Positions 14,348 through 50,346 of a stretch of 64,000 bases of DNA are shown here, in pieces. This DNA comes from Methanolobus tindarius DSM 2278 (GTDB taxonomy: Archaea > Halobacteriota > Methanosarcinia > Methanosarcinales > Methanosarcinaceae). The position numbers were made by a program, and so were the translations under genes. Within the stretch, counting starts at the first letter, position 1. Each line of letters starts with the position of its first letter. The notes below the pieces were generated by a model that had not been told where the DNA came from, searched no databases, and was given only the letters and a program-made list of their open reading frames with translations. Location: positions 1,214,879 through 1,278,878 of the forward strand of contig NZ_AZAJ01000001.1 of NCBI RefSeq assembly GCF_000504205.1, written 5' to 3'.

Positions 14348-15985
14348 ATGGCTGCACCAAAAACGGCAAACCATTTTCTATCCATTGACGAAATCGAAGC
14401 AGACCGAAAAGTAAAGCTCTGGTTCAAAAAGAAGGAGCTGAAACCAAAAACAAAAATAAGCTATTTGCACGCAATGCAACAATTCTGCGACCTTTGGGAA
14501 ATGACGCCATCAGAGCTTTTCAGGGAAGCAAAAGCAGATGTCAAAGACCCCGACCTTTGGGTAAATGAATACTGTCACATCGAAAAAATCATCGAGTTCA
14601 AGGACCATTTGAACAACTTCAAGATAGGCGTTAAGGGTGGTAAAGGATACGCAAGACAGACCATCAAAACCAAAATGAATGCCGTTGTGGAATTCTACAG
14701 GAAAAATGGCATTGAGATTGGAAAAGATGAACGATATGTCAAGGACGGTACTCTAGTTCAGCCACAAAACAGGAAAATTCCTGATGAAGCGGTCATGTCT
14801 GATGTCACTGCATGTAAGTTGGACGAGTTCGAAGAAGCGTTCATATTAGGTCAATCGTCAAGTGGATTGGCGAATGCTGACATGGCAAACATCACAATAG
14901 AGCAGTTCAAGAAAGGATTCAGACCTGAGACCGGTGTGACTTTGTTGCATGTGACGAGGGTCAAGACAGGAGTTGAATTCCGTACTTTCTTCTCGATTGA
15001 GGCCACAGATTCCATCAATCGATATATACAGAAACGCCAACTTAAGCCGGACTCTTACAACAGATGTGTCCTCACAGGTCATGAAAAGCAGAAAATAACC
15101 AGTGATGACAATTATCTGTTTTGTCAACGTTCCATTGCAAAGCAGTACCTTGAACCCGAATCTGAGTATATGGGAAAGCATACTAAATATGCTGAAGCTC
15201 AAGACAAATTCGAAAAAGCAATGGCACGTGGCGATATTGAAGCAATGCAACAACATAAACTTGTAATGGAAGAGTGGCGAAAATACAAGTATGAGACCCA
15301 AGAGGACATCCGAAAGCTCACCAATGCGGTTATCATGAAGATGTACAGGAAAATTGCCACCAAATCCGGCCATGGCGGTGAAAAATGGGAATGGGATGAT
15401 GTCAGGGGTCACAAGGTAAGAGCCTTTTTCGGCAACAGCCTCCTGAATTTTACCAATTCAAAAGACAAAGTAAAATACTTGATGGGTCACAAGCAATCGG
15501 TAGTGGATGACGCATATTTTAAGTACACTGATGAAGTGCTCGAAGACTTCTATGTGTCTCAATGTCTCCCTAGATTGCATTTCAGTGATACCAAGGTGTA
15601 TGAACTTGATGCACCTGCAAAGAAGAAATTACTTGAGGAAAATGAAGCCCTCAAAGCCAAAGTCGAAGCACAGGACCAACAACAGGCCGAAATGTCCGAA
15701 AGGCTCTCAAAGCTCGAAATTCTTGCTGAGATGCGTCAAAGGTCCGTGGATTCCGTGACTGAAATATGGGATAATCACATTGAAGAGACAAAACGAGACA
15801 GTGAAGCAGAGCCAATATCAAGTCAAAACCTGCCTCAATTGCCTGCAAAGTTCGAAATTAAGCCACAGTCAAAGGAAAGCATAGAGCGTGAAATCAAAGA
15901 CCTCGAATGGCATCTTTCGAAGTATCCAAGTGAGGAAGGAAACACAATGCTTGCAAAATTGCGTGAAAAGCTTGCAGGGATGTAA
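14348..15985 (+). CDS. Tyrosine recombinase/integrase with C-terminal coiled coil
   Basis: The 545-residue protein has an N-terminal SAM-like DNA-binding region (about residues 20-130), a catalytic domain with RGHKVR (HxxR, near residue 355), YLMGHKQ and a DDAYFKYTD tyrosine segment near residue 390, and a coiled-coil tail from about 425. The usual first catalytic Arg box is divergent (SSSGLANADMANI, no Arg), as in some archaeal integrases. It probably inserts and excises the element that makes up at least the left part of the island. GAGGT seven bases before the ATG is the ribosome binding site. It diverges from the MerR gene. Confidence 0.82.
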   Translation: MAAPKTANHFLSIDEIEADRKVKLWFKKKELKPKTKISYLHAMQQFCDLWEMTPSELFREAKADVKDPDLWVNEYCHIEKIIEFKDHLNNFKIGVKGGKGYARQTIKTKMNAVVEFYRKNGIEIGKDERYVKDGTLVQPQNRKIPDEAVMSDVTACKLDEFEEAFILGQSSSGLANADMANITIEQFKKGFRPETGVTLLHVTRVKTGVEFRTFFSIEATDSINRYIQKRQLKPDSYNRCVLTGHEKQKITSDDNYLFCQRSIAKQYLEPESEYMGKHTKYAEAQDKFEKAMARGDIEAMQQHKLVMEEWRKYKYETQEDIRKLTNAVIMKMYRKIATKSGHGGEKWEWDDVRGHKVRAFFGNSLLNFTNSKDKVKYLMGHKQSVVDDAYFKYTDEVLEDFYVSQCLPRLHFSDTKVYELDAPAKKKLLEENEALKAKVEAQDQQQAEMSERLSKLEILAEMRQRSVDSVTEIWDNHIEETKRDSEAEPISSQNLPQLPAKFEIKPQSKESIEREIKDLEWHLSKYPSEEGNTMLAKLREKLAGM

Positions 15986-23745: not shown

Positions 23746-23875
23746 TTCGTTGCACTCACTACAAATAGAATTTCATTTTATCGAGAGGTAATGTTGATTT
23801 AAACCAACTTAAATCATAAAGTTTATCTGTTTTTCTGGGATATATATAATAAATTTCTGAATGAGGTATCAGTGT

Positions 23876-26161
23876 ATGGATGAGGTTAACAAGCAGGAAC
23901 TCAGCGAGAGAGATATCTGTACAAAGTATATCACACCTGCAATCAAAAAATCAGGTTGGGACATTCATACTCAAATGCGGGAAGAAGTCTACCTCACAGC
24001 AGGTAGAGTCCTTGTTCATGGTCAGAAAGCTACTCGTGGTGAAAGAAAGCGTGCTGACTATGTTCTTTACTATAAACAGAATATTCCAGTAGCCGTTGTT
24101 GAAGCAAAGGACAATAAGCATACTGTTGGTGATGGTATGCAGCAGGCCCTATCATATGCTCAGATGCTCGATGTTCCCTTTGCATTCAGTTCCAATGGTG
24201 ATGCTTTCCTACAGCATGACAAGACAGGATTATATGATGCTGTAGAAAGAGAAATCTCATTAAATGATTTCCCTTCACCTTCTGAACTATGGGAGTACTA
24301 TTGCCGTTGGAAAGGGATTACCGATGAGAACAGCAAGATTGTTACTCAGGATTACTATTCATTCCTAGGCAAAGAACCCAGGTACTACCAAACAATTGCT
24401 ATTAACAGAACCATTGAAGCCATCGCAAAGGGTCAGGACCGTATATTGCTTGTAATGGCGACAGGAACTGGAAAAACATACACAGCATTCCAAATCATAT
24501 GGCGTTTATGGAAATCTCGTACAAAGAAGCGCATATTGTTCCTTGCAGACCGTAATATATTAGTCGACCAGACAAAAAAGAATGACTTCAAGCCGTTTGG
24601 GTCAGCTATGACCAAAGTCAAGGATAGGCAAGTGGACAAGTCATATGAGATATACCTTTCACTATATCAGGCTGTAACTGGTTCTGAAGAAGAGAAAAAT
24701 ATCTATAAACAATTCTCTCCTGATTTTTTTGACCTTGTGATTGTAGATGAATGTCACCGTGGAAGTGCAGATGAAAACTCAGCATGGAGAGATATTCTTG
24801 AATATTTCTCATCTGCGACTCAAATAGGTCTGACTGCTACTCCTAAAGAGACTGAAAACATATCTAATATTCACTATTTTGGAGAACCTATCTATACCTA
24901 TTCACTTAAACAGGGAATTGATGACGGATTCTTGGCACCTTATAGGGTCATCAGGATTGATATTGATAAAGACCTTCAAGGATGGAGACCGGAAAAAGAC
25001 AAGGTCGATAGGTACGGAAGGGTCATTGAAGACAGGATTTATAACCAGAAAGACTACGACAGGTCTATTGTCCTTGATAAGCGTACTCAACTTGTTGCAA
25101 GGGAAGTTACAGAATTTTTGCAATCAACTGACCCATTTTCCAAGACTATTGTGTTTTGTGAAAACATTGACCATGCAGAAAGGATGCGTAAAGAGCTTGT
25201 CAATGCAAACCCGGAACTTGCAAGGGATAGCAAGTACATAATGAGAATAACCGGTGATGAAAAAGAAGGTAAGGCTGAAATTGACAATTTTGCAATGCCT
25301 GAAAGCAAATATCCCGTAATTGCAACTACTTCAAAGTTATTGGGTACTGGTGTTGATATACAGACTTGCAAGTTAATTGTTCTCGACAAACGTATTCAGT
25401 CGATGACCGAATTCAAGCAAATAATAGGACGTGGAACTCGTATTCAGGAAGAATATGATAAACTGTATTTCACTATTATGGACTTCAAAAAAGCAACTGA
25501 GCTTTTTGCGGACCCTGATTTTGACGGCGATGCTGAAGAAGTGTATGTAGGTCCGGGTGTAAAAGCTTTAGCACCTCAAATATTAGGCAACAAGGTAAAA
25601 CCATATATGGTTGATGATGTTGATGCTAAAGTGGTTGCTGTACGCAAGCAGTATTATGGTCCTGATGGCAAACTGATAACCGAGTCGTTAACAGATTACA
25701 CTAAAAGAACCGTTTTAGATGAGTTCTCATCTCTTGATTCTTTCCTGAAATATTGGAGTGAAGCTGACAAAAAGCAAGCCATAATGGAAGAACTTATCGA
25801 AAAAGGACTTTTGTTGGAAGACCTTGCTGAAGAAGTTGGCAAGGAATATGACCCATTTGACTTAATCTGTCACGTGGTATACGACCAGCCACCTTTGAGC
25901 AGACGTGAAAGAGCAAACAAGCTTAAAGGTAGTGGATATTTTGCTAAATACGGGGACAAAGCCCGTGCTGTCCTTGATGCATTGTTACAAAAGTACTCTG
26001 ATGAAGGTCTCGAAAACCTTGAGAGCCTTGATGTTCTCAAAGTTGAACCTCTCAGCAAATATGGCACTCCTATTGAGATTATCAACATGTTCGGGGGTAA
26101 ATCTAATTACCTCGAAGCCATAAGGGCAATGGAATCTCAATTATACATGGCTGAAGCATAA
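23876..26161 (+). CDS. hsdR: Type I restriction enzyme, endonuclease/translocase subunit HsdR
   Basis: The 761-residue protein has an N-terminal PD-(D/E)xK nuclease (RADYVLYY...[10 protein letters not shown], then QQALSYAQ), a SF2 motor with [18 protein letters not shown] and QIIGRGTR, and a C-terminal helical domain. It translocates and cleaves unmodified DNA as part of an R2M2S complex. I start at the ATG at 23876 because GAGGT lies eight bases upstream and TATATATAATAA at 23840-23852 would place the transcript start near 23870; an ATG at 23861 is in frame. First gene of hsdR-hsdM-hsdS. Confidence 0.93.
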
Positions 26162-26188
26162 TTCAAACATGAAGTGCAGGTTAAAAAA

Positions 26189-27637
26189 ATGTCATTAAGT
26201 GCCACTATAAAGAGTATACAGGACATAATGAGAAAAGATGCGGGTGTAGATGGTGATGCACAACGCATAAGTCAGTTGGCTTGGATGGTATTCCTTAAGA
26301 TTTTCGATGACAGAGAAAAGGAATATGAAATAATGGATGATGGTTATACATCGTCTATTCCTGAACGACTTCGCTGGCGAAACTGGGCTGCTGATGAAGA
26401 AGGTATCACTGGTGACGAACTACTTGATTTTGTGAACGATGACCTGTTCAAAACACTAAAGGACCTGCAATTTGCACCTGATGCAGACCCACGTGGATTT
26501 GTTGTACGTGATGTTTTTGAAGATTCTTACAACTATATGAAGAATGGTACTCTGATACGTCAAGTCATCAATAAAATAAATGATGTGGATTTCAATAGCT
26601 CTGATGATAGGCATCTCTTTGGGGATGTATACGAAAAAATATTGAAAGACTTGCAAAGTGCTGGAAATGCCGGTGAGTTCTACACACCACGTGCTGTCAC
26701 CGAATTTATGGTGCAGATGGTCAACCCTCTGATTGGTGAAAAGATACTTGACCCTGCATGTGGAACTGGTGGTTTCCTTACCTCATCAATTGAACATCTA
26801 CGCAAGCAGGTTAAGAGTGTAGAAGACGAAAAGAGACTTCAGGATTCAATCAATGGTATTGAGAAAAAACCTCTACCTCACTTGCTCTGTGTAACTAACA
26901 TGTTACTTCATGGTATAGAAGTCCCTTCACAAATACGGCATGATAACTCACTTGCACGACCATTAAGAGACTATAAACCTTCAGACCGAGTTGATGTGAT
27001 TGTTACTAATCCCCCATTTGGTGGAATGGAAGAAGATGGTATCAAAACAGGATTTCCCGCAAATTTACAGACAAGCGAAACTGCTGATTTGTTCCTTGTG
27101 TTGATTGTACACCTGCTCAAAGATGGCGGACATGGTTCCATAGTCCTTCCTGATGGGACTTTATTCGGTGAAGGTGTGAAGACTCGTATCAAAGAAAAGC
27201 TGCTTACTGAATGTAATCTCCACACCATTGTACGCCTTCCTAATGGTGTGTTCAGTCCATATACTGGTATTAAAACCAATCTTTTGTTCTTTACAAAGGG
27301 CGAACCTACTAAAGAAGTATGGTACTATGAGCATCCATATCCCGAAGGATATAAGTCATACTCCAAGACAAAACCCATGCGGATACAGGAGTTCGAACCT
27401 GAGAAGGAGTGGTGGAATAAACGCCATGAGAATGAGTTTGCTTGGAAGGTTACTATTGATGAGATTGAAGCTAACAATTACAATCTTGATATCAAAAACC
27501 CTAATGTGGAAGACATTGACCACGGTGACCCTGAAGAACTACTTTCTAAGTACAAACATCTACTGTTGCAGATAGACGAAACACGCAATGCTTTGAAAGA
27601 TGAACTTAGGGCAGCATTGGACGGTAAAAACGCATGA
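26189..27637 (+). CDS. hsdM: Type I restriction enzyme, methyltransferase subunit HsdM
   Basis: The 482-residue protein shows the helical N-terminal domain (SIQDIMRKDAGVDG...ISQLAWMVFLKIFDD), SAM motif I ILDPACGTGGF and the adenine methylation motif NPPFGG. It makes N6-methyladenine at the site chosen by HsdS. The ATG at 26189 is used; a GTG at 26174 is in frame. It follows hsdR by 27 bp and overlaps hsdS by four bases, so the three genes are one operon. Confidence 0.93.
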   Translation: MSLSATIKSIQDIMRKDAGVDGDAQRISQLAWMVFLKIFDDREKEYEIMDDGYTSSIPERLRWRNWAADEEGITGDELLDFVNDDLFKTLKDLQFAPDADPRGFVVRDVFEDSYNYMKNGTLIRQVINKINDVDFNSSDDRHLFGDVYEKILKDLQSAGNAGEFYTPRAVTEFMVQMVNPLIGEKILDPACGTGGFLTSSIEHLRKQVKSVEDEKRLQDSINGIEKKPLPHLLCVTNMLLHGIEVPSQIRHDNSLARPLRDYKPSDRVDVIVTNPPFGGMEEDGIKTGFPANLQTSETADLFLVLIVHLLKDGGHGSIVLPDGTLFGEGVKTRIKEKLLTECNLHTIVRLPNGVFSPYTGIKTNLLFFTKGEPTKEVWYYEHPYPEGYKSYSKTKPMRIQEFEPEKEWWNKRHENEFAWKVTIDEIEANNYNLDIKNPNVEDIDHGDPEELLSKYKHLLLQIDETRNALKDELRAALDGKNA

Positions 27638-29328
27638 ATACTTCTTTGTTCTTTGATAATTTCTCCATAGTTGCCGACTCACCCAATGGAGTCCAGAAAT
27701 TACGAGAAATGATACTACAACTTGCGGTGATGGGTAAACTTGTACCACAGAACCCTAATGATGAAACTGCAAGTGTATTGGTGGAAATGATTAAGGCTGA
27801 GAAGACAAGCTTGGCTAAGCAGGGCATCATCAAGAAAACTAAGAGCTTGCCATTTGTTCAGGCTGATGAAATTTCATATGAAATTCCAGAAAGTTGGTAT
27901 TGGACAAGACTTGGAAACATAGGAATAGTAAATCCAAGGAATAATGTTTCAGATGACTTGGATGTTTCATTTGTTCCTATGAATTTAATATCAGAAAAGT
28001 ATGGAGAGGACGCTGAATCTGAGAATAGGATATGGAAAGATATCAAAAAAGGATACACACACTTTGCTGAAAATGATGTTGTAATGGCAAAAATTACGCC
28101 ATGTTTTCAGAATGGTAAGTCTACTGTTATGAAGGGACTATGCAATAGTATTGGAGCAGGTACAACAGAACTACACGTGTTTAGGTCAGTGACAGACTAT
28201 GTAAATCCTGATTATGTAGTGTTGTACTTGAAAAGTCCTCATTACATTGAAACAGGAATCACTAAAATGACAGGTTCAGCAGGTCAAAAAAGGGTTCCAC
28301 GTGATTATTTTGCACATAATCCATTTCCACTTCCACCTCTTGAAGAACAAAAGCGCATAGTAGCCAAGGTTGACCAGCTTATGGCTATGTGTGGCGAACT
28401 GGAAGCCTTTCAGCAGCAGAAGAATGAAAGCCGTATTCATCTCAATAAGGCTGCCCTCAATGGATTGCTTAATGCAGACAGTGCAGATGAGTTCAATGAA
28501 CTATGGCAGTTGATTTATAGCAACTTCGACCTGCTCTATGATAACCTTGACAATGTAGCCAAGTTTAAGGAAGCCATACTACAGCTTGCTGTGATGGGGA
28601 AGCTTGTGCCACAGGACTCAAACGATGAGCCTACAAGTGTGTTATTAGAGAGGATTGAGGATGAAAAAAAGAGGTTGATGAAGGAAGGTATCATCAGTCT
28701 AAAAAACTTAGCAACAAATATTGTAGTCGATGATATTCCATATCAAATACCACATAATTGGGCATGGTTTAAGCTGAATGACCTTGTTTACAATTTTGGA
28801 CAAAAAAAGCCAGATTCTAAATTTACATATATTGATGTTGCTTCTATAAATAAAGAAAAGGGGTTAATTTCAGACAATGTGAAAACCATTCTTCCTGATG
28901 ATGCTCCATCAAGAGCAAGAAAAATAGTCAAGAGAGGATGTGTAATTTATTCAACTGTCCGTCCCTATTTATTAAACACTGCTATTGTTGATGATGATTA
29001 TTCACCTGAACCTATAGCAAGTACTGCATTTGCAGTACTCAATCCATACTCAGGTCTATTAAATAAATATCTTCATTACTACCTTCGAAGCCAACATTTT
29101 GTAAACTATGTAGAATCCCAAATGATGGGGATGGCATATCCTGCAATAAACGACACTAAACTTTACAAGGGATTAGTGCCGCTCCCACCACTTGAAGAAC
29201 AAAAGCGCATAGTAGCCAAGGTTGACGAGCTTATGGCTATCTGTGATGAACTGGAAACAAGGATAAGTAAGGCTCAGGAAAATAGTGAAAAGTTGACCAA
29301 TGCCGTGGTCAATTCTGTTGTTGAATAG
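27634..29328 (+). CDS. hsdS: Type I restriction enzyme, specificity subunit HsdS
   Basis: The 564-residue protein has two half-subunits, each with a helical entry segment (LQLAVMGKLVPQ), a target recognition domain and a conserved coiled coil starting PLPPLEEQKRIVAKVD (about residues 231 and 516). The two recognition domains differ, giving a bipartite asymmetric DNA site. The ATG overlaps the hsdM stop. The central repeats are nearly identical at DNA level, a substrate for domain exchange. Confidence 0.92.
   Translation: MNTSLFFDNFSIVADSPNGVQKLREMILQLAVMGKLVPQNPNDETASVLVEMIKAEKTSLAKQGIIKKTKSLPFVQADEISYEIPESWYWTRLGNIGIVNPRNNVSDDLDVSFVPMNLISEKYGEDAESENRIWKDIKKGYTHFAENDVVMAKITPCFQNGKSTVMKGLCNSIGAGTTELHVFRSVTDYVNPDYVVLYLKSPHYIETGITKMTGSAGQKRVPRDYFAHNPFPLPPLEEQKRIVAKVDQLMAMCGELEAFQQQKNESRIHLNKAALNGLLNADSADEFNELWQLIYSNFDLLYDNLDNVAKFKEAILQLAVMGKLVPQDSNDEPTSVLLERIEDEKKRLMKEGIISLKNLATNIVVDDIPYQIPHNWAWFKLNDLVYNFGQKKPDSKFTYIDVASINKEKGLISDNVKTILPDDAPSRARKIVKRGCVIYSTVRPYLLNTAIVDDDYSPEPIASTAFAVLNPYSGLLNKYLHYYLRSQHFVNYVESQMMGMAYPAINDTKLYKGLVPLPPLEEQKRIVAKVDELMAICDELETRISKAQENSEKLTNAVVNSVVE
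28339..28374 (+). repeat. hsdS internal direct repeat, copy 1
   Basis: These 36 bp are identical to 29191-29226; after one mismatch another 13 bp agree. They encode the start of the conserved coiled coil in each half of HsdS. Confidence 0.85.
29191..29226 (+). repeat. hsdS internal direct repeat, copy 2
   Basis: Second copy of the 36-bp repeat, 852 bp after the first and in the same frame. Recombination between the copies would remove one recognition domain. Confidence 0.85.
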
Positions 29329-38379: not shown

Positions 38380-39516
38380 TCACAAGTATTGTTCTAAATT
38401 TCCTGCAAACTCTTCGAAGCCTATTGGACAGTATTTAACATCACCGAATAATCTCTTATATCTGTCATGGACACCCTTGCTTGCCATGTTTTCTTGTACG
38501 TTTTCATCCATATTTTCATCATTGTCATTTTCGCTATAATGTTCGTTTTTTTTGTCAATAATGATAATTTTAGGATGAATTCCATTTTGTCTAAACAATG
38601 ACCTTTTCAGCAAGTATTGAATATGTATATCAGCTTCAGGCATAGAATATCCAATGAAGTATATTCGTGTAGCATTTTGGAGCACCTTTTCTGCTTGGAG
38701 CCAAATAGACACAAGGAATGGATTCTCATAAGCTTTTGTAAAAGTAGGTGGGACAACTATTGGTTTTTGTTCAGATGCACCATCTTTACAAAAAGGAGAA
38801 TCACAGGGTTCTGAATCTTTGAATATATCATCCACGATACCTTTCCTTTTTGGTGTTATTTTTATTGAATTGCATGTTGGACAATATATCCAATTCAGGC
38901 TCCCATGTAGTTTCAGCAAAGGAACATTTTTTACCCTTGGAACGGACCAAGTATCATCATTTTGATGCCTACTTCTTCTATGTTTTTCATTTCGAAATCT
39001 TATTCCATAGTTAAGGTCAATATTAGAAGCTCCTCTATCGCCGAGTTTTGTCAATGCATTGTCAAGTAATATGTCATAATTTAAGCTTATAAAACTGCAT
39101 TTATTCCATCTACCAGGATACATGGTTAATAAATTGTCAACAAAATCATGATGATAGCCTCGTGGATTTTGTAATTTTTCGTATAAAACACTACATATGC
39201 AGTAAATTAAATTATCTCGGAGGGAGCTAAGTTTTTTAACATCCCACTTAGGTGACATGTTTTCCTGTTTTTGTAATGCAATATCAATTGGTCCAAGAAC
39301 TTCTTCAAAAGTAGGGAGATTTGAAATCTCACAGTTGTTGTGGTAAATATCACTTAAGTATTCTTTCACCATTTTCACTTTATTATTACGAGGAAATTGC
39401 CTAAATGATTCCTCTAATAATTGATTAGTAATGATTCCTCCTTCAGGCTTGGATGCCCCTGCTCCAAAGAAGAAAACAACTTTCTCTTCATCCCAATTTA
39501 TTACCCCATCATTCAT
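38380..39516 (-). CDS. SIR2-like domain protein (probable defence NADase)
   Basis: The 378-residue protein has VVFFFGAGAS near the N-terminus (residues 13-22), SLNYDILLDNA, LLKLHGSLNW and the C-terminal FIGYSMPEADIHIQYLL, the usual set of motifs of stand-alone SIR2-like domains in antiviral systems. A four-cysteine knuckle (CPTC...C...C, about residues 200-245) follows the LHGS motif. Such proteins usually deplete NAD+ on infection. The ATG at 39516 is used; an upstream TTG is in frame. It forms a two-gene unit with 37952-38368. Confidence 0.78.
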   Translation of the reverse strand: MNDGVINWDEEKVVFFFGAGASKPEGGIITNQLLEESFRQFPRNNKVKMVKEYLSDIYHNNCEISNLPTFEEVLGPIDIALQKQENMSPKWDVKKLSSLRDNLIYCICSVLYEKLQNPRGYHHDFVDNLLTMYPGRWNKCSFISLNYDILLDNALTKLGDRGASNIDLNYGIRFRNEKHRRSRHQNDDTWSVPRVKNVPLLKLHGSLNWIYCPTCNSIKITPKRKGIVDDIFKDSEPCDSPFCKDGASEQKPIVVPPTFTKAYENPFLVSIWLQAEKVLQNATRIYFIGYSMPEADIHIQYLLKRSLFRQNGIHPKIIIIDKKNEHYSENDNDENMDENVQENMASKGVHDRYKRLFGDVKYCPIGFEEFAGNLEQYL

Positions 39517-39724
39517 AATATGGATTATATTAAACAATGGTATTTACGTATGCCGAAATAATTTTACTCGGTATTTATCTTCTTTCCAATAAGCTGAAGC
39601 ATTTGGAATAGTAAGGTTCTTGGCAGTATGTAGAAAGTTATATTCCATCTTTTTAGTCGTAAGTATCAATTCGAAAAATACTTAATGAATATGTAATTTG
39701 CTTTATTGTAAGGGGGTTTCCAAA

Positions 39725-40546
39725 TTGAATTATTGGAGAATGTCTTTTAGATTGGGAAGCAATGGTGTCGAGGTATGGGAGCAATGTAGGAAGCAAGGAA
39801 TTGCTGCTATGGGTTACTACTACAATGGTGAACCTGTTGTAGGCGATTGCAGAAATATCACTGAAAAAGAATTTGATGCTATATGGAGAGAATCAGGTGT
39901 TAGGTCAAGAACCGGTAAAAGCAGTCTCAAACATGTTGTGTTCCATATGAAGGAAGGCGATGTAATCTACGCTAAGAAAGGAACTGAAATCGTTGGCAAA
40001 GGCAAGATTGCTGAAGAATATGACTATAAACCGGGTATTGTAAAGCAAGATGGTGTTAGATGGGAACATTATGTAAAAGTGGATTGGAACACCGATTTCA
40101 AACCGTTTGTTCTTGACCTTAGTGCCAATCAACATACAGTGCTCAAAATCAATCAAGAACGCCTTGCAAGAATTCGTGAAAAAGAATATGGTACTGATAT
40201 TAATTTAACTCCTGATATTATCGATGAAGTGGCGAGTGCAGAGGAAGGCAAGAAGTATATCAGGGAAGCAAGCTTCAGGCAAAGGAACCGTAAGCTCATT
40301 GAGCAAAAGAAAGCCAATTCAGATTATCGGTGTGAAGTATGTGGAATGCGTTATGAAGATGTTTATGGCGAAATTGGAAAGGATTACATTATTGCTCATC
40401 ATCTAGAACCAATAGGTAATAGGGACGAAGCTGCCAAGACGACACTTGATGATATTGCTCTTGTCTGCTCAAACTGCCATGATATGCTTCATAAGACTAA
40501 TCCACCAATGAGTATAGAAGAACTACGAACTCAATTATATCAGTGA
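39725..40546 (+). CDS. EVE-like domain fused to HNH endonuclease
   Basis: The 273-residue protein starts NYWRMSFRLGSNGVEVWEQCRKQ and continues with MKEGDVIYAKKGTEIVGKGKI, the pattern of EVE/PUA-like modified-base readers. The C-terminus is an HNH nuclease: CEVCG...IIAHHLEPIG...LVCSNCHDMLHK. This is the layout of modification-dependent (type IV-like) restriction enzymes. GGGGG eight bases upstream supports TTG at 39725; an ATG at 39740 is the alternative. It diverges from the SIR2-like gene. Confidence 0.75.
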   Translation: MNYWRMSFRLGSNGVEVWEQCRKQGIAAMGYYYNGEPVVGDCRNITEKEFDAIWRESGVRSRTGKSSLKHVVFHMKEGDVIYAKKGTEIVGKGKIAEEYDYKPGIVKQDGVRWEHYVKVDWNTDFKPFVLDLSANQHTVLKINQERLARIREKEYGTDINLTPDIIDEVASAEEGKKYIREASFRQRNRKLIEQKKANSDYRCEVCGMRYEDVYGEIGKDYIIAHHLEPIGNRDEAAKTTLDDIALVCSNCHDMLHKTNPPMSIEELRTQLYQ

Positions 40547-40707
40547 ATTAAAGGGTTCCAATAATGCAACATTCCGTATCTTTCGTTTCATTTTTGCGTA
40601 TAGGATGATTTTAGCCATATTTTAAAACCCGGATACCTTAGAGCCTTTGGATTTTAAATTAAAGCACGCAGGAAACGTTTTTAAAGAAGATGTTTCATTT
40701 TCAAATT

Positions 40708-41274
40708 ATGAAGTATTCAAAAGAATGGTTGCGCCCGGATGAGGCAAAGAAGATACTCAACATACCTGACCTCGAAGAAAAGTATGAAATTTGGGTCATT
40801 CTCATGTATTTCCCGGCCCTCCGTGTGACTGAGGCCATACACATTAGACCCAGAGACCTAGATTTGAGGGGTGAATGCGTGGAAATCTGGAAGGGTAAGG
40901 GTAAGAAAGGTGAACTACAGAAAGCACCCTGTGAACTGCATATCCTGAAGAGGATAAAGAGATATTGCGAACACCATGACCTCAAAGACACCGATTACAT
41001 AATGTTCAGCAATAAGTCCGACAAGGTTACACGGTCACATGTCTATAAGGTCGTCAATAAACTCTGTGAACGTGCCGGAATCGACAAGAGAATAGGCACA
41101 CACACTTTCCGCAGGTCAAGGGCTGAACACCTGTTGGATAATGGCCTCGAACTGACCTATGTCAGTAAGTTCCTGAGACACAAGAACATCAGCACAACTA
41201 TGGCTTATCTCGATATCAGTGTTGCAGATATTCAGAGAGAATTAGAGAAAATAGAGATGCCTGTGATTGTTTGA
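40708..41274 (+). CDS. Short XerC/D-like tyrosine recombinase
   Basis: The 188-residue protein contains only the catalytic domain: Arg in ALRVTEAIHI, Lys in KGKGKKGE, HTFRRSR, LRHKN and the Tyr in TMAYLDIS. The N-terminal core-binding domain of full Xer proteins is missing. Similar short recombinases are common in archaeal mobile regions. It marks the right end of the island. An ATG at 40690 is in frame; I prefer 40708 from the position of TTTTTAAAG. Confidence 0.82.
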   Translation: MKYSKEWLRPDEAKKILNIPDLEEKYEIWVILMYFPALRVTEAIHIRPRDLDLRGECVEIWKGKGKKGELQKAPCELHILKRIKRYCEHHDLKDTDYIMFSNKSDKVTRSHVYKVVNKLCERAGIDKRIGTHTFRRSRAEHLLDNGLELTYVSKFLRHKNISTTMAYLDISVADIQRELEKIEMPVIV

Positions 41275-43283: not shown

Positions 43284-46200
43284 TCAAACTACAGTCACAT
43301 TCATTCCCTTCACCTCAGCCACAACCTCCGGATTATAATACGAGTAAGCCTTGCTCTCTGACACAACAGCTTTCACCGGGAAGAGAGCCTGTACCTGCAT
43401 GCTGAAGTTCAGTTCTTCTCCGGCCTGCATGTCATCAATGTAGAAAATAACTTTCCTTCCGGCGATCTCGTAGAGGGTTATCTTTTCCTCTGATGCTTTT
43501 GTTGCTTCAAGGCTTGATGTTACAGGGCTGAAGCCAGTCGGGACAGCAAGGTCAACTATCATCATACCACTTGAACTTGTAGTGCCATCGATACCGGTGA
43601 TTCCGTTGTACTTGATGTGAGCGTTCACTGTTACAATATCATTAACTGAAACATCAGTTGAATCATATTCGACATCAAGTTCAATCTCATTCTGCTCAAC
43701 GACATCCGGGAGAATGACATTGAAACGCCTCACAAGCTGATAGTTCAGGTCGCCTGTGCCTTCAAGTGAAAGCGTGACAGTTGATACATCGTCAGGAATC
43801 TCAATTATCTGGACAACATCGAAGTTCTGCTGATTCACTTCAACTGAACTTATTTCTGTACCGTCAGCAATCACATGAACTGTTGCATCGATATCCCTCC
43901 CAGCAGATGCTGCTGCACTCATCAAAGCTCTGAATGCCATGACAGTATCCTGGGTACTTGAGAAACCACCGTTTGAATTACGCTGTGCAGCAATCCATTT
44001 CAGTGATGATGTTGCTGATGGGTTATTTGCCTCGATGAGGGCAAGGGTAGCGTATGCAGTTGTTTCCACATTCTTGCTTGAAGGAGCTATAAATCCATAG
44101 CCACCGTGTTCGTATGGGAGTCTGACATCACCGTCACCATATCCCCAGTACATACCATCTTCATCCTGTTTTGAGATTGCCAGCAGCTCAATAAGAGCTT
44201 CATCAGCCATAGAACTGTCAAGTTTCTGCAATGCAAGAGTTCCGATTGCAAGAGCATAAGGATCATCCTGGCCTGCAAGATTATCTTCAAGGTACTGCTG
44301 GGCTTTTGACATGACAACAGGGTTCGCTGAACCATATTCCTCCAGTGCAAGGGTTGTGTATGCTGTAAGAGCATAAGTGCCACTAACACCACCCATCATG
44401 TCCTGATGAATCACAAAACCGACCTGCTCCCATGAACCATCTTCCTGCTGGTAGGATTCTATCCAGTCTGCAGCCTCAGAAAGAATATTCTCATCAATTG
44501 TGGTAACATCCCTTGCAGCACTGAACTGGGACAGCACAAATGAAGTTAGCCATAGACTGCCGTTTTCATCACTTTCACCGAATGCTGAGAAGGAGCCATC
44601 GCTGTGGCGGTATGTAAGTTCACGCTGGTACCCTGTTATTATGTACATCTCAGCCTTTGCACGGACTTCCGGATTATCCTGTCCGGTTGCTTTGAGGTAT
44701 CTCAATACCTCAACGTCAGTTGAGAATAGCATCATATTCTGTTCACCACACCCATAAGGCATACCAAGCAGATCGTCCACACCGCTTATGCTCTGGGCAA
44801 CAATACTTGGAGTGAAACTCACAAGAATCTTCTCTGAATCTGAAACAATGTCTGCCGGAAGTGTTGTATCAAGCTCCACAGAACCACTACTGAGTACTCC
44901 GTTATCAACAATCTCACGGGTTGTACCTTCAGCTTCAACAATGATGTCCTTTCTCACCGCATCGGCTCTTTCTGTTGTCTGGCCTGTTATCTCAACGATC
45001 TGTTTTCCAACTTTCGTAGGACTGATTGTAAAGCTGATATATCCCGCACCATTTCCATCCACGGTGACCGTCTGGACATCATCACCGATGATTTTGAACC
45101 AGTTGGCACCGCTTAATGTGAGCTTGACATCCTGCTCAGTATCAAGATAATTGTAGACCTGTACCTGTACAGGGAATTCTTCTCCCCTTGTCACAGAATA
45201 TGGAAGATCCGGATCAACGAAGAAGTCCTGGAAAACCGTGAGGCTGGATTCAGAAATACCAATTCCTTCCGGTCCGGTTGAAACTGCATGCAATCTCCAT
45301 GTAGTGATGCTGTCCGGTGCATTCAGGTCAACACTTGCAAGACCATCCTCATCGGTGAGGAGTTCAGGCATCCAAACCCATGTTTCTGGGAAGAACTGAC
45401 GCACACGCTGCACTTCGGCAAGTTCGCCATCGTCAGCACTATCTGTCACTGTTACGCTCTTTGCCGAATCTGCTTCCATTGCCATTGCGGGCATTTCTTC
45501 ACCCATTTCTTCATCTACATCCATCATGAAACCTGCAAAGTTTGCACCGTCAATAACAACTTCACGACCTGTTAACTGATAAACGTCTCGAGATTCAGGA
45601 ACATCAATTCCCGGCGATGACATAACTACCACACCCTCATTGTAAAGAGCATCATAAGCACCTATCATGTACCTTGGATGTGATTCTGCCTGAGGTTCCA
45701 TGAAACGAATTTCGAGTTCATCGAAGACCTGCTTGAGATTGAGCCTGCCTTCGCTGAGAGCATAGACTGACTCATCAACTATGGAGAATCCAATCATTGA
45801 TTTGCTGCCTGTATCGAAATCAACTGTAACATCATCCCCCGGTTCAGCGGATTCACTGCTGAATGAGCTGGAAAAGTCAACCTGAGTAGAGAATTCTACA
45901 TCGAATGGAAGCACATCCACTGAAACTTCGCTGTTGGGGTTTATCATGTAAGCAACAACCTTTGCCTGTGGGCTCATCTGCGGCGTTACTGGAATGCTAA
46001 TATCAGCTTCATCGCTTGTTGCTGAATAAACTGTTCTTCCATTGGCAAACACATCATAGAATACAGTTCCCGGATTTGTAGAATAGACGTGGAATGAAAT
46101 CGTGTCACCAACTTCCGGCACTCCGTCACTTGTCTGGGTGATGTGAATGAAACTGGCACTTGGAGAGTAAGCTGCATACAGATACTCACTAGCCCAGGCA

Positions 46201-47507
46201 TCGTCTGCATGTGCTGAAATGTCCAGACTTGTACTATTTTCAGGAATATCCAGTTCAAGCATTGAAACACCGCCTTCGGTGTTCAAGGTGAACTCGTCAC
46301 TTGTGTAATCATAAGTGTCATTTCTCAAACCAGTCTCTACTGTTACTTCAGCATCAACAGGATTTCCTCCTGGATCTTTTGTAACAATAAGAACCTGAAG
46401 AGGCATTCCGGGTTTTATTGTACTTGATTCGGGAATAAGCTGGATAACAAGCGGAGATTCTGCAATTGTCAGAAGCTTGTTTGTGGATTCACTGTGATTG
46501 CCTGTGTCTGTTACAGTCACATTGAGCATGAGACTTGCCTGTCCACCTGCACCGTATGTCCCGGCTGCGTATTCTACTTCAGGAAGCTCAAACTCAATTG
46601 AACCGTTCTCAAGTGTGCCGGAAAAAGTTGCGTATTGTTCCCACTTACCAACATAGCGTGAAGCCTCCACAAGAACATCACCTTCAACTACTTTTCCAAA
46701 GAAATAATTGGCTGAAACGGTGCCTGTAATTTCATCAGATACAAGGAACCATTCCTGCGGGGTTTCAAGTGAAACATCAAACTTAGGAAGTACATATTTG
46801 TCCACCTGGATGTCAACCATGGAAGAAGAGTCACCGGCTTTTGCAGTTATTTTCCACGTACCAAGGTTCAATTCTGATGCAAGAGGCAGATCAAAGGAAA
46901 CAACACCATACTCATTTGAGTTTAATTCTTCCTTGAAGACCTTGATACCTTTTGCATCTGTTATTTCAACGGTTATATCCTCCTGAACAGGTACGAGGTT
47001 GTTGTTCAGGGAAACAATTCTTCCGTTAATTGTTTGTCCCGGCTTGTAAATTGGTTTATCGGTTTCTATGAACAGAGGGTTGTTATTTACCACTGTTACT
47101 GTTGCCTCAAATTCTGTATCATAACCTGTGGGCTTTGCTGTAAGTGTATAAGTTCCTTCTTCAACATCGGGCACTTCAAAGGAAGCAACGACATTTCCAG
47201 ATTCTGATGTTGATGCCTGTACAAGACTTATCTCGTTGTTGTTCTCATCGGTAAGAGTATATTCAACACACCGCTCAACCGGTTCATTGTCTGAGAAAGC
47301 TGCCATGGTGATTGAGCTTTCACCGCCTGAAAAGAGCATTTTTGGTGCAAGTATCAGAAACTCATCACCTGATGAAGCTACCTGACCACCACACTGACCG
47401 GCTATATTGGAAGAAAGATCATCACTTCCGACACAACCTGAAATTATCACTGCAAACAACGATACTATAATTATTAACGAGCCTGTTTTTTTCCCTTTTA
47501 AGTTCAA
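43284..47507 (-). CDS. Alpha-2-macroglobulin family lipoprotein with intact thioester
   Basis: The 1407-residue protein begins with a signal peptide and lipobox (VIISGC, Cys about 24). MG domains follow with TDKPIYKPGQTI and VDKYVLPKFDV. The alpha-2-macroglobulin domain has FPETWVWMPELLTDEDG. The thioester domain has PYGCGEQNM (Cys about 918), GYQREL, DGSFSAFG and NGGFSSTQDTV, and a receptor-binding-like domain closes the protein. About 114 residues after the thioester Cys is VIHQDMMGG, like complement C3 rather than human A2M. It should trap proteases or attach covalently to targets at the cell surface. The TTG at 47507 is chosen because GGAGTGG lies six bases upstream; the frame opens at 47591. 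Confidence 0.92.
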   Translation of the reverse strand: MNLKGKKTGSLIIIVSLFAVIISGCVGSDDLSSNIAGQCGGQVASSGDEFLILAPKMLFSGGESSITMAAFSDNEPVERCVEYTLTDENNNEISLVQASTSESGNVVASFEVPDVEEGTYTLTAKPTGYDTEFEATVTVVNNNPLFIETDKPIYKPGQTINGRIVSLNNNLVPVQEDITVEITDAKGIKVFKEELNSNEYGVVSFDLPLASELNLGTWKITAKAGDSSSMVDIQVDKYVLPKFDVSLETPQEWFLVSDEITGTVSANYFFGKVVEGDVLVEASRYVGKWEQYATFSGTLENGSIEFELPEVEYAAGTYGAGGQASLMLNVTVTDTGNHSESTNKLLTIAESPLVIQLIPESSTIKPGMPLQVLIVTKDPGGNPVDAEVTVETGLRNDTYDYTSDEFTLNTEGGVSMLELDIPENSTSLDISAHADDAWASEYLYAAYSPSASFIHITQTSDGVPEVGDTISFHVYSTNPGTVFYDVFANGRTVYSATSDEADISIPVTPQMSPQAKVVAYMINPNSEVSVDVLPFDVEFSTQVDFSSSFSSESAEPGDDVTVDFDTGSKSMIGFSIVDESVYALSEGRLNLKQVFDELEIRFMEPQAESHPRYMIGAYDALYNEGVVVMSSPGIDVPESRDVYQLTGREVVIDGANFAGFMMDVDEEMGEEMPAMAMEADSAKSVTVTDSADDGELAEVQRVRQFFPETWVWMPELLTDEDGLASVDLNAPDSITTWRLHAVSTGPEGIGISESSLTVFQDFFVDPDLPYSVTRGEEFPVQVQVYNYLDTEQDVKLTLSGANWFKIIGDDVQTVTVDGNGAGYISFTISPTKVGKQIVEITGQTTERADAVRKDIIVEAEGTTREIVDNGVLSSGSVELDTTLPADIVSDSEKILVSFTPSIVAQSISGVDDLLGMPYGCGEQNMMLFSTDVEVLRYLKATGQDNPEVRAKAEMYIITGYQRELTYRHSDGSFSAFGESDENGSLWLTSFVLSQFSAARDVTTIDENILSEAADWIESYQQEDGSWEQVGFVIHQDMMGGVSGTYALTAYTTLALEEYGSANPVVMSKAQQYLEDNLAGQDDPYALAIGTLALQKLDSSMADEALIELLAISKQDEDGMYWGYGDGDVRLPYEHGGYGFIAPSSKNVETTAYATLALIEANNPSATSSLKWIAAQRNSNGGFSSTQDTVMAFRALMSAAASAGRDIDATVHVIADGTEISSVEVNQQNFDVVQIIEIPDDVSTVTLSLEGTGDLNYQLVRRFNVILPDVVEQNEIELDVEYDSTDVSVNDIVTVNAHIKYNGITGIDGTTSSSGMMIVDLAVPTGFSPVTSSLEATKASEEKITLYEIAGRKVIFYIDDMQAGEELNFSMQVQALFPVKAVVSESKAYSYYNPEVVAEVKGMNVTVV

Positions 47508-47649
47508 TTTTAACCACTCCAGACTTAGAGTCTTATGTTTCTTATTACAGAGTTTGGGAATAGGAATGTATATACTTTGCTTAAACTTCAAAGATGTTTG
47601 AAGTTATGTTATGGGACGCAGGTGGATTTTGAAAATTGGAAAATAAAAG

Positions 47650-48984
47650 TTAAATTTCTGTTATTTCCCAATGATCATACATTTCAGTAATACTCACTGA
47701 CACTCCATCGCCCCTTACTGCTGTTGTATCGTTTATCATTGTGAATTTGCCCTGATAACCGCTTGTAACGGTCATTTCATCCCTTCCGGATTTCCAATTC
47801 AAAAAAAGCAGGACTTTTTCACCATATTCAAATGATGGACTATCCTCAACCCAGATAGAATCATTACCTACCGTTCCGCCATCAATTGTAATTTGCAAAT
47901 CTCCTGTGTCCAATGGATTTTTTAGATATTTGTTAACATGCACCCCAATATCAGTATATATCATATCTTCAGTTCCAATATTCAGTTCATCATTAGATTT
48001 GTCAGGTCTCTGCCCATCCGCAGTATTCCATCTTGAGGGATAAGCACCTGTAACGGTTCCTGCAATTATGATGTCTGACTGGGAAACTAAATCTTCGATG
48101 CTTAAAGCTTCCATTGATATCGAAATGCCTACATTCAAACCATCATTTCCCGGGGTTAATGCAGAATTAGAAGAAGAAGAAGAAGAAATTAATTTTTTAA
48201 ACTCAGCTAAATCTATTGATTGACTATCTACTTCATAAAGAACCCTATCAATTTGCACTGTGTTATTGTCTACTATGCAAACCCTGGAAACATCGCCATT
48301 AACTGTATAAAAATAAATAAAGTACTGATATCCATTCAAAAGGAAGTCATTTGAAGGGGCTTCTAGTGGATATTCATCAAGGTAGGAAATTACATCTTTA
48401 ATCTTTGTTGAATTCTCTATAACACTTGATTCCAGACTAAATCCGTTTTTTATTGATATTTTATTAATGTCAGAAGAATTATTTATGAGGGAACTTACAT
48501 GGAGATTAGTTTTCTTTACAGTTTCTTCATCTGAAACTATTCCGGATTCAATAAGTTCCTGAACATAAATTATGTTGATAGGCGTGCCATCGACCTGATA
48601 ATAAACATTATCGATATTAACCATGTCCTCCCCCACAATAGTTATTCCTGCAATCTTACCGGAGTCATCATAAAAATCCATAGAATAACGGAAGCCACCT
48701 CGGTCAGTTTGGTCGTCCATTTTTTCAAAGGAGTATTGATCCAGATGAGAAATCAGTTTCCCTATTGTTGCCCTGTCTTCTATTGTGCCTGAATCACCAC
48801 TCATCCCATTAAAGACAGATATGTTGGTGATACCAGAACCATCGAGATCAGCAATTGCGATAGCACTTTTATTATTGGTTGATTCTATGACGTAACCATC
48901 TGTTGAATCTGCGATGCAACCTGAAAAAAAGAGTGAGCTGCATAAAAGAAAACATAAGATCAAGTGATTTGTTATTTTGTTCAT
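47650..48984 (-). CDS. Lipoprotein of unknown function
   Basis: The 444-residue protein has a signal peptide with lipobox (SLFFSGC). Two related units of about 110 residues follow, each with a strand-rich segment and D-x-VYY/LYEVD ending (DNVYYQVDGTPINI; DRVLYEVDSQSIDL). A Ser-rich linker coded by GAA-type triplet repeats leads to a C-terminal domain with IAGTVTGAYPSRWNTADG and GEKVLLFL. That last domain is shared with the frameshifted gene at 49676-50346. Function unknown; extracytoplasmic. Confidence 0.7.
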   Translation of the reverse strand: MNKITNHLILCFLLCSSLFFSGCIADSTDGYVIESTNNKSAIAIADLDGSGITNISVFNGMSGDSGTIEDRATIGKLISHLDQYSFEKMDDQTDRGGFRYSMDFYDDSGKIAGITIVGEDMVNIDNVYYQVDGTPINIIYVQELIESGIVSDEETVKKTNLHVSSLINNSSDINKISIKNGFSLESSVIENSTKIKDVISYLDEYPLEAPSNDFLLNGYQYFIYFYTVNGDVSRVCIVDNNTVQIDRVLYEVDSQSIDLAEFKKLISSSSSSNSALTPGNDGLNVGISISMEALSIEDLVSQSDIIIAGTVTGAYPSRWNTADGQRPDKSNDELNIGTEDMIYTDIGVHVNKYLKNPLDTGDLQITIDGGTVGNDSIWVEDSPSFEYGEKVLLFLNWKSGRDEMTVTSGYQGKFTMINDTTAVRGDGVSVSITEMYDHWEITEI

Positions 48985-49147
48985 TCCAATCATCAATGCC
49001 AATGTTAAAAGAAAACAATTCTAATAGTTCGCATCATCATACAATAAAAATTAGATTATTGCTTAAATTAATTATGGTCATCCATCCAACTGAAAAATTC
49101 AATCGGTTTCTGCAAAGCCACAAAAACAAAGATATCACATTTTAAAT

Positions 49148-49609
49148 CTACAGAACAGTGATCTTGTCAATTCTAGCAAAACGATACCGTGATACTTTGT
49201 ATTTTATTCCATCACCAATCTTCACTTTGTTGAAATCTTCCAGACTGACTAAATAAGTGTATGCCTCACCTTCAAAAACATCATTTGCAGAGTCATCAGA
49301 GATGAGCCTTACTCCAACGCAGTAATCAACATTCGAATATTTCCGTACCAAGAGCTCTTTCAGTGAACCAGTTACATACACATCCTTATCATCTTGAGTG
49401 AAAAACTGTTCAAAGTCTTTATTGTCTACAAGTATCCATGGTTCACCAGGATGTGGTGCGTTGAATATGCTCTCGCAGGTGTTTCCATAATATCCATTGA
49501 TAACTTTGTGTTCAACCACACCTTCCACTTCAACCGGAGTTACGTAATAGATAGATGATATGAGGAAAATAGCAAGGAACAAAAATAGCGTTTTATTAAA
49601 AGCTCCCAT
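49148..49609 (-). CDS. Membrane-anchored or secreted protein, function unknown
   Basis: The 153-residue protein has an N-terminal hydrophobic helix (residues 5-23) without a lipobox, then a small strand-rich domain with two conserved-looking Cys (NTCESIF, VDYCVGV). GCAGGTTGG precedes the ATG at 49609. It lies between two related lipoprotein genes on the same strand, so it is probably part of the same surface-protein cluster. Confidence 0.6.
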   Translation of the reverse strand: MGAFNKTLFLFLAIFLISSIYYVTPVEVEGVVEHKVINGYYGNTCESIFNAPHPGEPWILVDNKDFEQFFTQDDKDVYVTGSLKELLVRKYSNVDYCVGVRLISDDSANDVFEGEAYTYLVSLEDFNKVKIGDGIKYKVSRYRFARIDKITVL

Positions 49610-49675
49610 AACCAACCTGCCCCTAAAAATACTGCTAACTGTATTTTAATTACTCTATATATACTGATTTTTCTA

Positions 49676-50346
49676 TCAAGAAATCATTTCGACTAATTCT
49701 TTCTGATTTATAGTTCCATGTACACCTACGGCGTTTCCATCATCATTTAACGTTAATTTCCCTTGAATCGAGCCAAGAGTAAAATAGTGATCAGGTCCAA
49801 GGTCCTTTGTGTACTCCCACTCATCCTCGATCAAATAGAGAAAAACCTTTTCATCCGGCTGAAATGAAGCTTCATAATCGGCAGTACTGACATCATTGCC
49901 AACTGTTCCTGTAAAAACCCTAACTATAACTTCATCTTCAGGCAATGGGTTTTTAAATATTCATCAGCAGTTATCACAACATCAGTGTAAATCATATCAT
50001 ACCATTCGAAGTCATCAACAGAATCATGAGGTCTTTTTCCATCTACAGTATTCCATTTACTTGGGAGAATCTCTTTTACAGTACCTATGAGAATCACATT
50101 CGAATTCTCTGTGAGATATTCATAGCTAAGGAACTCCATTTCAGGGTTTGAACCTATAATAAGTCCATCCGACCCGTTATCAGAGATAAACAGTTCCCCA
50201 TATCCTCCAAAGGTATAGTAAGGATCATCGCTGGCTTCCTGCTTATTGGAATCATTAAGGAAGTCGCCAGCATAGATCAGGCCTACCAGCACCAGTGAAA
50301 ATAAAATAGAGAGAATCAAAATAGACTTAATCTTCATTTCTTTCAT
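49676..50346 (-). pseudogene. Frameshifted surface protein related to the C-terminal domain of 47650-48984
   Basis: Two overlapping frames encode one protein. The first (50346 to 49924) has a signal helix and IGTVKEILPSKWNTVDGKRP, then runs out of frame at TTTAAAAACCC near 49950. The second (to 49676) continues with NPLPEDEV-type sequence and FTGTVGNDV, matching the paralogue's KNPLDTGDL...GGTVGNDS. Adding one A to the A-run restores the frame. It is either a recent pseudogene or a sequencing error. Confidence 0.75.

What the first reader, a model, noticed from the sequence alone, without database searches (positions are those of the whole stretch)
43284..47507. Eukaryotic-type alpha-2-macroglobulin with thioester and complement C3-like catalytic histidine in a methanogen
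Seen: GCGEQNM thioester, GYQREL, DGSFSAFG, NGGFSSTQDTV and, 114 residues after the Cys, VIHQDMMGG. Known: human A2M has Asn at that place, while C3 has VIHQEMIGG with the His that directs the thioester to hydroxyl groups, at a spacing of 116. Inference: this lipid-anchored archaeal protein may bind covalently to sugar hydroxyls (for example on viruses or competing cells) rather than only trap proteases. At about 1407 residues it is of animal size and lacks the extra domains of most bacterial forms, suggesting transfer.
Basis: partly seen in the sequence, partly recalled or inferred. Interest (0 to 1): 0.75.

Follow-up and report, generated by a model that had tools for sequence, protein, structure and literature searches.

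The report
CD109-like thioester protein in methanogen
A methane-making archaeon carries a membrane-tethered relative of the animal protease-trap and complement proteins; it is an old, genus-wide prokaryotic gene with a conserved chemistry-tuning histidine rather than a recent borrowing from animals, and some of its bacterial cousins appear to use selenium in place of sulfur at the reactive bond.

Summary
One 1407-codon gene (43284-47507, minus strand) encodes MG1-MG6, a bait region, MG7, a thioester domain (CGEQ) and MG8. His1062 lies 114 residues after the thioester Cys. The histidine is invariant in 27 of 27 aligned prokaryotic CGEQ relatives and occurs in human CD109 and A2ML1 at the same spacing (114; C3 has 116). 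It marks hydroxyl-capable thioester chemistry in general, not complement; A2ML1, which has it, is a protease inhibitor. A hypervariable bait loop, an invariant VRQFFPETW plug, and a lipobox in all 33 methanogen copies point to a membrane-tethered, cleavage-triggered covalent protease trap. Transfer from animals is disfavoured: the gene is in all Methanolobus sampled, in a conserved neighbourhood; the nearest outside relatives are Planctomycetota and Hydrogenedentota; an AU test rejects grouping these methanogens with the animal proteins (p 0.007-0.017). An A2M in Methanolobus was published in 2021. Side result: in 27 Planctomycetota homologues the thioester Cys codon is TGA, with a covarying hairpin downstream and SelB in 21 of 24 genomes, suggesting an internal selenoester.

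The parts
43284..47507 (-). alpha-2-macroglobulin / TEP-family lipoprotein gene, 1407 aa, TTG start
47517..47520 (-). GGAG ribosome-binding-like site before the TTG start
   Evidence: sequence shown
47433..47507 (-). signal peptide with lipobox ISGC, Cys53 (frame numbering); [SA]GC after a hydrophobic stretch in all 33 methanogen copies
47082..47366 (-). MG1 (residues about 76-170), placed by model and fold match to complement beta chains; no extra MG domain before it
46821..47075 (-). MG2 (173-257)
   Evidence: Pfam PF01835
46584..46799 (-). MG3 (265-336)
   Evidence: Pfam PF17791
46200..46427 (-). MG4 (389-464)
   Evidence: Pfam PF17789
45756..46145 (-). A2M_BRD region, MG5/MG6 (483-612)
   Evidence: Pfam PF07703
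45432..45611 (-). hypervariable bait region (661-720), identity 0.22-0.32 among 33 copies; low-confidence (probably disordered) in both models
45387..45404 (-). plug VRQFFP (730-735); Arg731 and Phe734 equivalent to Arg730 and Phe733 of A2ML1
   Evidence: PMC9156758
45114..45383 (-). A2M domain, MG7 (737-826)
   Evidence: Pfam PF00207
43920..44804 (-). thioester domain TED (930-1224)
   Evidence: Pfam PF07678 E 2.9e-76; fold match
44739..44750 (-). Cys948-Gly-Glu-Gln951 thioester
44406..44408 (-). His1062, predicted acyl-imidazole former, invariant in 27 of 27 aligned relatives
43320..43574 (-). MG8 / receptor-binding domain (1340-1424)
   Evidence: Pfam PF07677

Best explanation
A lipoprotein on the outer face of the methanogen's membrane that acts as a monomeric, cleavage-triggered covalent protease trap, working like human A2ML1 and tethered as CD109 is. 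Steps supported by sequence: secretion signal and lipobox; MG1-MG6 ring; hypervariable bait loop ending in the conserved plug; TED with CGEQ; His1062 aligned with the catalytic His. Inferred steps: a protease attacking the cell surface cuts the bait, the plug is released, the TED swings out, His1062 forms an acyl-imidazole with Gln951, and the protein becomes covalently joined to the protease through its amines or hydroxyls.
For: Domain order; bait identity 0.22-0.32 against 0.98 around the thioester and 0.82 for the block that contains the plug; Arg731, Phe734, Cys948, Gln951 and His1062 invariant from methanogens to bacteria; lipobox in 33 of 33 methanogen copies; models match native CD109 and A2ML1 (TM 0.70-0.71), native C3 (0.63-0.65) and complement beta chains; a single Cys, the thioester one, after residue 108, so no inter-chain disulfide of the tetrameric A2M kind there. 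Mechanistic precedent: A2ML1 His1084 (PMC7864068) and the plug-in-channel mechanism (PMC9156758).
Against: No biochemistry. The His-to-thioester distance was not measured on a model (no coordinates available). The target protease is unknown and no conserved partner gene was recognised. How archaea lipidate such proteins is unsettled (own knowledge). Bait hypervariability would also fit relaxed constraint or an arms race with something other than proteases.
Confidence: 0.65

Rival explanations
1. Complement-like tagging: the activated thioester is aimed at sugar hydroxyls of viruses or competing cells, as in C3 and C4B.
For: His1062 followed two residues later by an acidic residue (VIHQDMMGG against C3 VIHQEMIGG); Makarova et al. 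2021 propose complement-like immunity for some archaeal A2M-related loci (PMC8416519).
Against: No anaphylatoxin or C345C/NTR domain in the Pfam scan; spacing 114 as in CD109 and A2ML1; the same His serves protease inhibition in A2ML1; no convertase-like partner recognised in the conserved neighbourhood.
Confidence: 0.15
2. Surface cross-linker or adhesin: the thioester fixes the protein to the archaeon's own S-layer or to neighbouring cells, a structural role.
For: Lipid tether and constant presence in the genus.
Against: A variable bait and an invariant trigger are not expected for a constitutive linker.
Confidence: 0.1
3. Recent acquisition from animals.
For: Among solved structures the best hits are animal proteins, and the domain order is animal-like; but only animal proteins of this type have solved structures.
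Against: Nearest non-methanogen relatives are Planctomycetota and Hydrogenedentota (46-51% identity); AU test p 0.017 and 0.007 against methanogens plus animals as one clade; conserved synteny in Methanolobus.
Confidence: 0.03

Closest known systems
CD109 (human, GPI-anchored TEP)
   Same: VIH..x.GG at spacing 114, CGEQ, same domain order, membrane-tethered; best fold match 8s3o (E 5e-53, TM 0.70) and best sequence match for the MG7-TED part
   Different: Lipobox instead of GPI (GPI from own knowledge); not one clade with CD109 in the tree; 28% identity in the fold alignment
A2ML1 (human monomeric protease inhibitor)
   Same: His at spacing 114, bait, plug RQxF, presumed monomer
   Different: Secreted, without a lipid tether; shares no clade with the methanogens
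Complement C3
   Same: Catalytic His with a nearby acidic residue, CGEQ, MG ring
   Different: Spacing 116; anaphylatoxin and C345C domains absent here; C3 has an anaphylatoxin domain in place of a bait region (own knowledge)
E. coli ECAM / Salmonella A2M
   Same: Prokaryotic, membrane-anchored (PMC4498604), covalent protease trap
   Different: They carry two extra N-terminal MG domains and an altered MG ring (PMC9156758); the methanogen protein does not
Archaeal A2M homologues, Makarova et al. 2021 (PMC8416519), including WP_015053894.1 of Methanolobus psychrophilus
   Same: Same genus and family; already attributed there to transfer from bacteria
   Different: His, bait, lipobox, synteny and a tree with animals were not found described in the passages read

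Membership tests
A2M/TEP superfamily | CxEQ thioester motif in a TED domain | tested here: met
A2M/TEP superfamily | MG1-MG6 ring, MG7, TED, MG8 order | tested here: met
A2M-type protease inhibitor | hypervariable bait region before the Arg/Phe plug | tested here: met
A2M-type protease inhibitor | covalent conjugation of the cleaving protease | not testable with these tools
   needs purified protein
Complement C3/C4/C5 | anaphylatoxin and C345C/NTR domains | tested here: not met
   absent from the Pfam scan
Complement C3/C4/C5 | catalytic His | tested here: met
   but shared with CD109 and A2ML1, so not diagnostic
CD109 subfamily | VIH..x.GG at spacing 114 and membrane tether | tested here: met
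   (tether by lipobox, not GPI)
CD109 subfamily | common descent with CD109 to the exclusion of other prokaryotic relatives | tested here: not met
ECAM-type bacterial A2M | two extra N-terminal MG domains | tested here: not met
ECAM-type bacterial A2M | lipoprotein or membrane anchor | tested here: met
   lipobox in 33 of 33; lipidation itself not tested

The most novel reading that the evidence does not exclude
The family this protein belongs to includes selenoester members. In Planctomycetota homologues the reactive Cys of the internal thioester is selenocysteine (G-Sec-FEQ), so that an internal selenoester, expected to be more reactive than a thioester, replaces the bond used by complement and A2M. 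With this goes the weaker reading that animal TEPs, complement included, branch from within a prokaryotic CGEQ/His family of which the Methanolobus protein is a living member. The probability given is for the selenoester.
Probability: 0.8. Interest if true: 0.75.

Novelty: new member of a known kind. Interest (0 to 1): 0.5.

Why it matters
The protein shows that the full animal-type trap (MG ring, bait, plug, TED, catalytic His) exists in archaea and bacteria. This makes the origin of animal thioester proteins testable and shows that the His is an old, general trait, not an invention of complement. The selenoester relatives, if confirmed, would be a non-redox use of selenocysteine as a covalent warhead and a new chemistry for this superfamily.

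Tried and rejected
Viral origin: no relative in IMG/VR by this scan. Plasmid carriage: only distant Deinococcus and proteobacterial A2Ms. Part of a mobile island: the gene is syntenic across Methanolobus, while the 27-kb island beside it is strain-specific. Animal origin: rejected by AU tests; 'all prokaryotic CGEQ as one clade' is not rejected (p 0.10), so an old single exchange in either direction stays open. tRNA-Sec alone did not separate TGA from non-TGA genomes, since selenocysteine use is common in the phylum; SelB did. The downstream hairpin is not stronger than the gene's own background in absolute energy; the support is the contrast with Cys sisters, the synonymous-shuffle score and the covariation. 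TGA as sequencing error: rejected, same codon in 27 genes. The CAGE-complex paper (PMC12485934) proved unrelated.

Full report
Observation. The minus-strand frame 43284-47591 contains all the motifs quoted, with Cys948 of GCGEQ and His1062 of VIHQDMMGG 114 residues apart. The start is most likely TTG at 47507 (1407 aa), with GGAG upstream and agreement with the starts of relatives. Pfam finds MG2, MG3, MG4, BRD, A2M, TED and the receptor-binding domain in animal order. The genome has this one TED gene.

Anatomy. Two AlphaFold2 models from alignments of 26-27 relatives (mean pLDDT 75-76) match animal proteins along their length: the C-terminal half matches native CD109 (8s3o, TM 0.70), A2ML1 (0.71) and native C3 (about 0.64) but not opened C3b (0.30); the N-terminal half matches complement beta chains, that is MG1-MG6. 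No MG domain precedes MG1, unlike E. coli and Salmonella A2M (PMC9156758). Residues 661-720 are hypervariable among 33 methanogen copies (identity 0.22-0.32; 0.98 at the thioester) and are followed by VRQFFPETW, whose Arg and Phe correspond to the plug residues that hold native A2ML1 closed (PMC9156758). All 33 copies have a lipobox Cys after a hydrophobic stretch.

The histidine. His1062 is invariant in 27 aligned CGEQ proteins of archaea and bacteria, and His occupies this column in every CGEQ locus examined. Human CD109 and A2ML1 also have His, at spacing 114 like the methanogen; C3 has 116; A2M has Asn. In A2ML1 this His (1084) gives hydroxyl reactivity that is used to conjugate and inhibit proteases (PMC7864068). 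The residue therefore predicts acyl-imidazole chemistry but does not by itself point to sugar binding.

Distribution and origin. All 20 sampled genomes of the genus have the gene, as do the 8 sampled genomes of a second genus of the family and scattered others: 38 of 393 in the phylum, including a few distant hits. Flanking genes are the same across Methanolobus, so it is a core gene. Outside the archaea the nearest relatives are Planctomycetota and Hydrogenedentota at 46-51% identity. In trees of the MG7-TED region, Methanosarcinales form one clade (100/99), animals fall inside the prokaryotic CGEQ diversity next to three other archaeal sequences (91/75 with C3, 99/95 without), and holding the methanogens with the animals is rejected (p 0.017; p 0.007). 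Animal branches are long and only four animal proteins were available, so the direction of any old exchange is not settled. Makarova et al. 2021 already reported an A2M in Methanolobus psychrophilus and proposed bacterial origin (PMC8416519).

Mechanism. The best reading is a tethered monomeric protease trap: bait cut, plug released, TED exposed, acyl-imidazole formed by His1062, covalent capture. Sequence supports the parts; the chemistry is inferred from A2ML1. Complement-like tagging remains possible.

A side result. In 15 Planctomycetota relatives with the CFEQ form of the motif, open frames broke exactly at the thioester Cys, where the codon is TGA; a second fetch raised this to 27 genes, with several paralogues in some genomes. 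The aligned MG7-TED stretch of the first 15 holds no other in-frame stop. A read-through protein has MG2, MG3, BRD, A2M, TED and MG8 domains. Downstream of the TGA there is a hairpin: folding energy -16.6 against -9.4 kcal/mol in Cys sisters (p 8e-7; synonymous-shuffle z -1.55 against -0.39, p 0.002). In nine divergent genes a 12-pair stem at columns 16-53 shows 7 pairs changed on both sides and 15 such cells, reached in 5 and 0 of 500 shuffles, and collapses when slid. SelB above cut-off is found in 21 of 24 TGA genomes and 3 of 14 others (Fisher p 8e-5); a clear tRNA-Sec is found in about two thirds of the TGA genomes. No paper found links selenocysteine with A2M; two papers of Haft and colleagues could not be opened. 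This is best read as an internal selenoester.

Neighbourhood. The 27 kb next to the gene (about 14.3-41.3 kb) is absent at that place in relatives and is flanked by integrase genes, with a type I restriction-modification system, a SIR2 protein and an HNH nuclease.

Noticed in passing
L061-L063, L065, L066, L068-L070, L075-L081, L114, L116, L118-L127: In 27 Planctomycetota A2M-family genes the thioester Cys codon is TGA (G-TGA-FEQ or G-TGA-MEQ), with a covarying hairpin just downstream; SelB in 21 of 24 such genomes. Suggests selenocysteine and an internal selenoester.
   Followed up: yes
L072: A Cys (TGC) member has the same 12-bp stem at the place where TGA sisters have their hairpin: a possible recent Sec-to-Cys change.
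   Followed up: no
window 14348-41271: Strain-specific island of about 27 kb inserted next to the A2M gene: integrase gene at each end (14348-15982, 40690-41271), type I R-M (23861-29325), SIR2 (38383-39537), HNH (39698-40543).
   Followed up: partly
L104, L105, L106: Three other archaeal CGEQ proteins group with animal TEPs (99/95 without C3): candidates for the closest prokaryotic kin of animal thioester proteins.
   Followed up: partly
L048 and L112: In one Methanolobus genome the A2M gene is split near residue 1080 into two frames with a TGA: a broken or misassembled copy.
   Followed up: no
window 47650-50346: Upstream genes (some with signal or lipoprotein-like N termini) are present in some Methanolobus and missing in others, unlike the A2M gene itself.
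   Followed up: no
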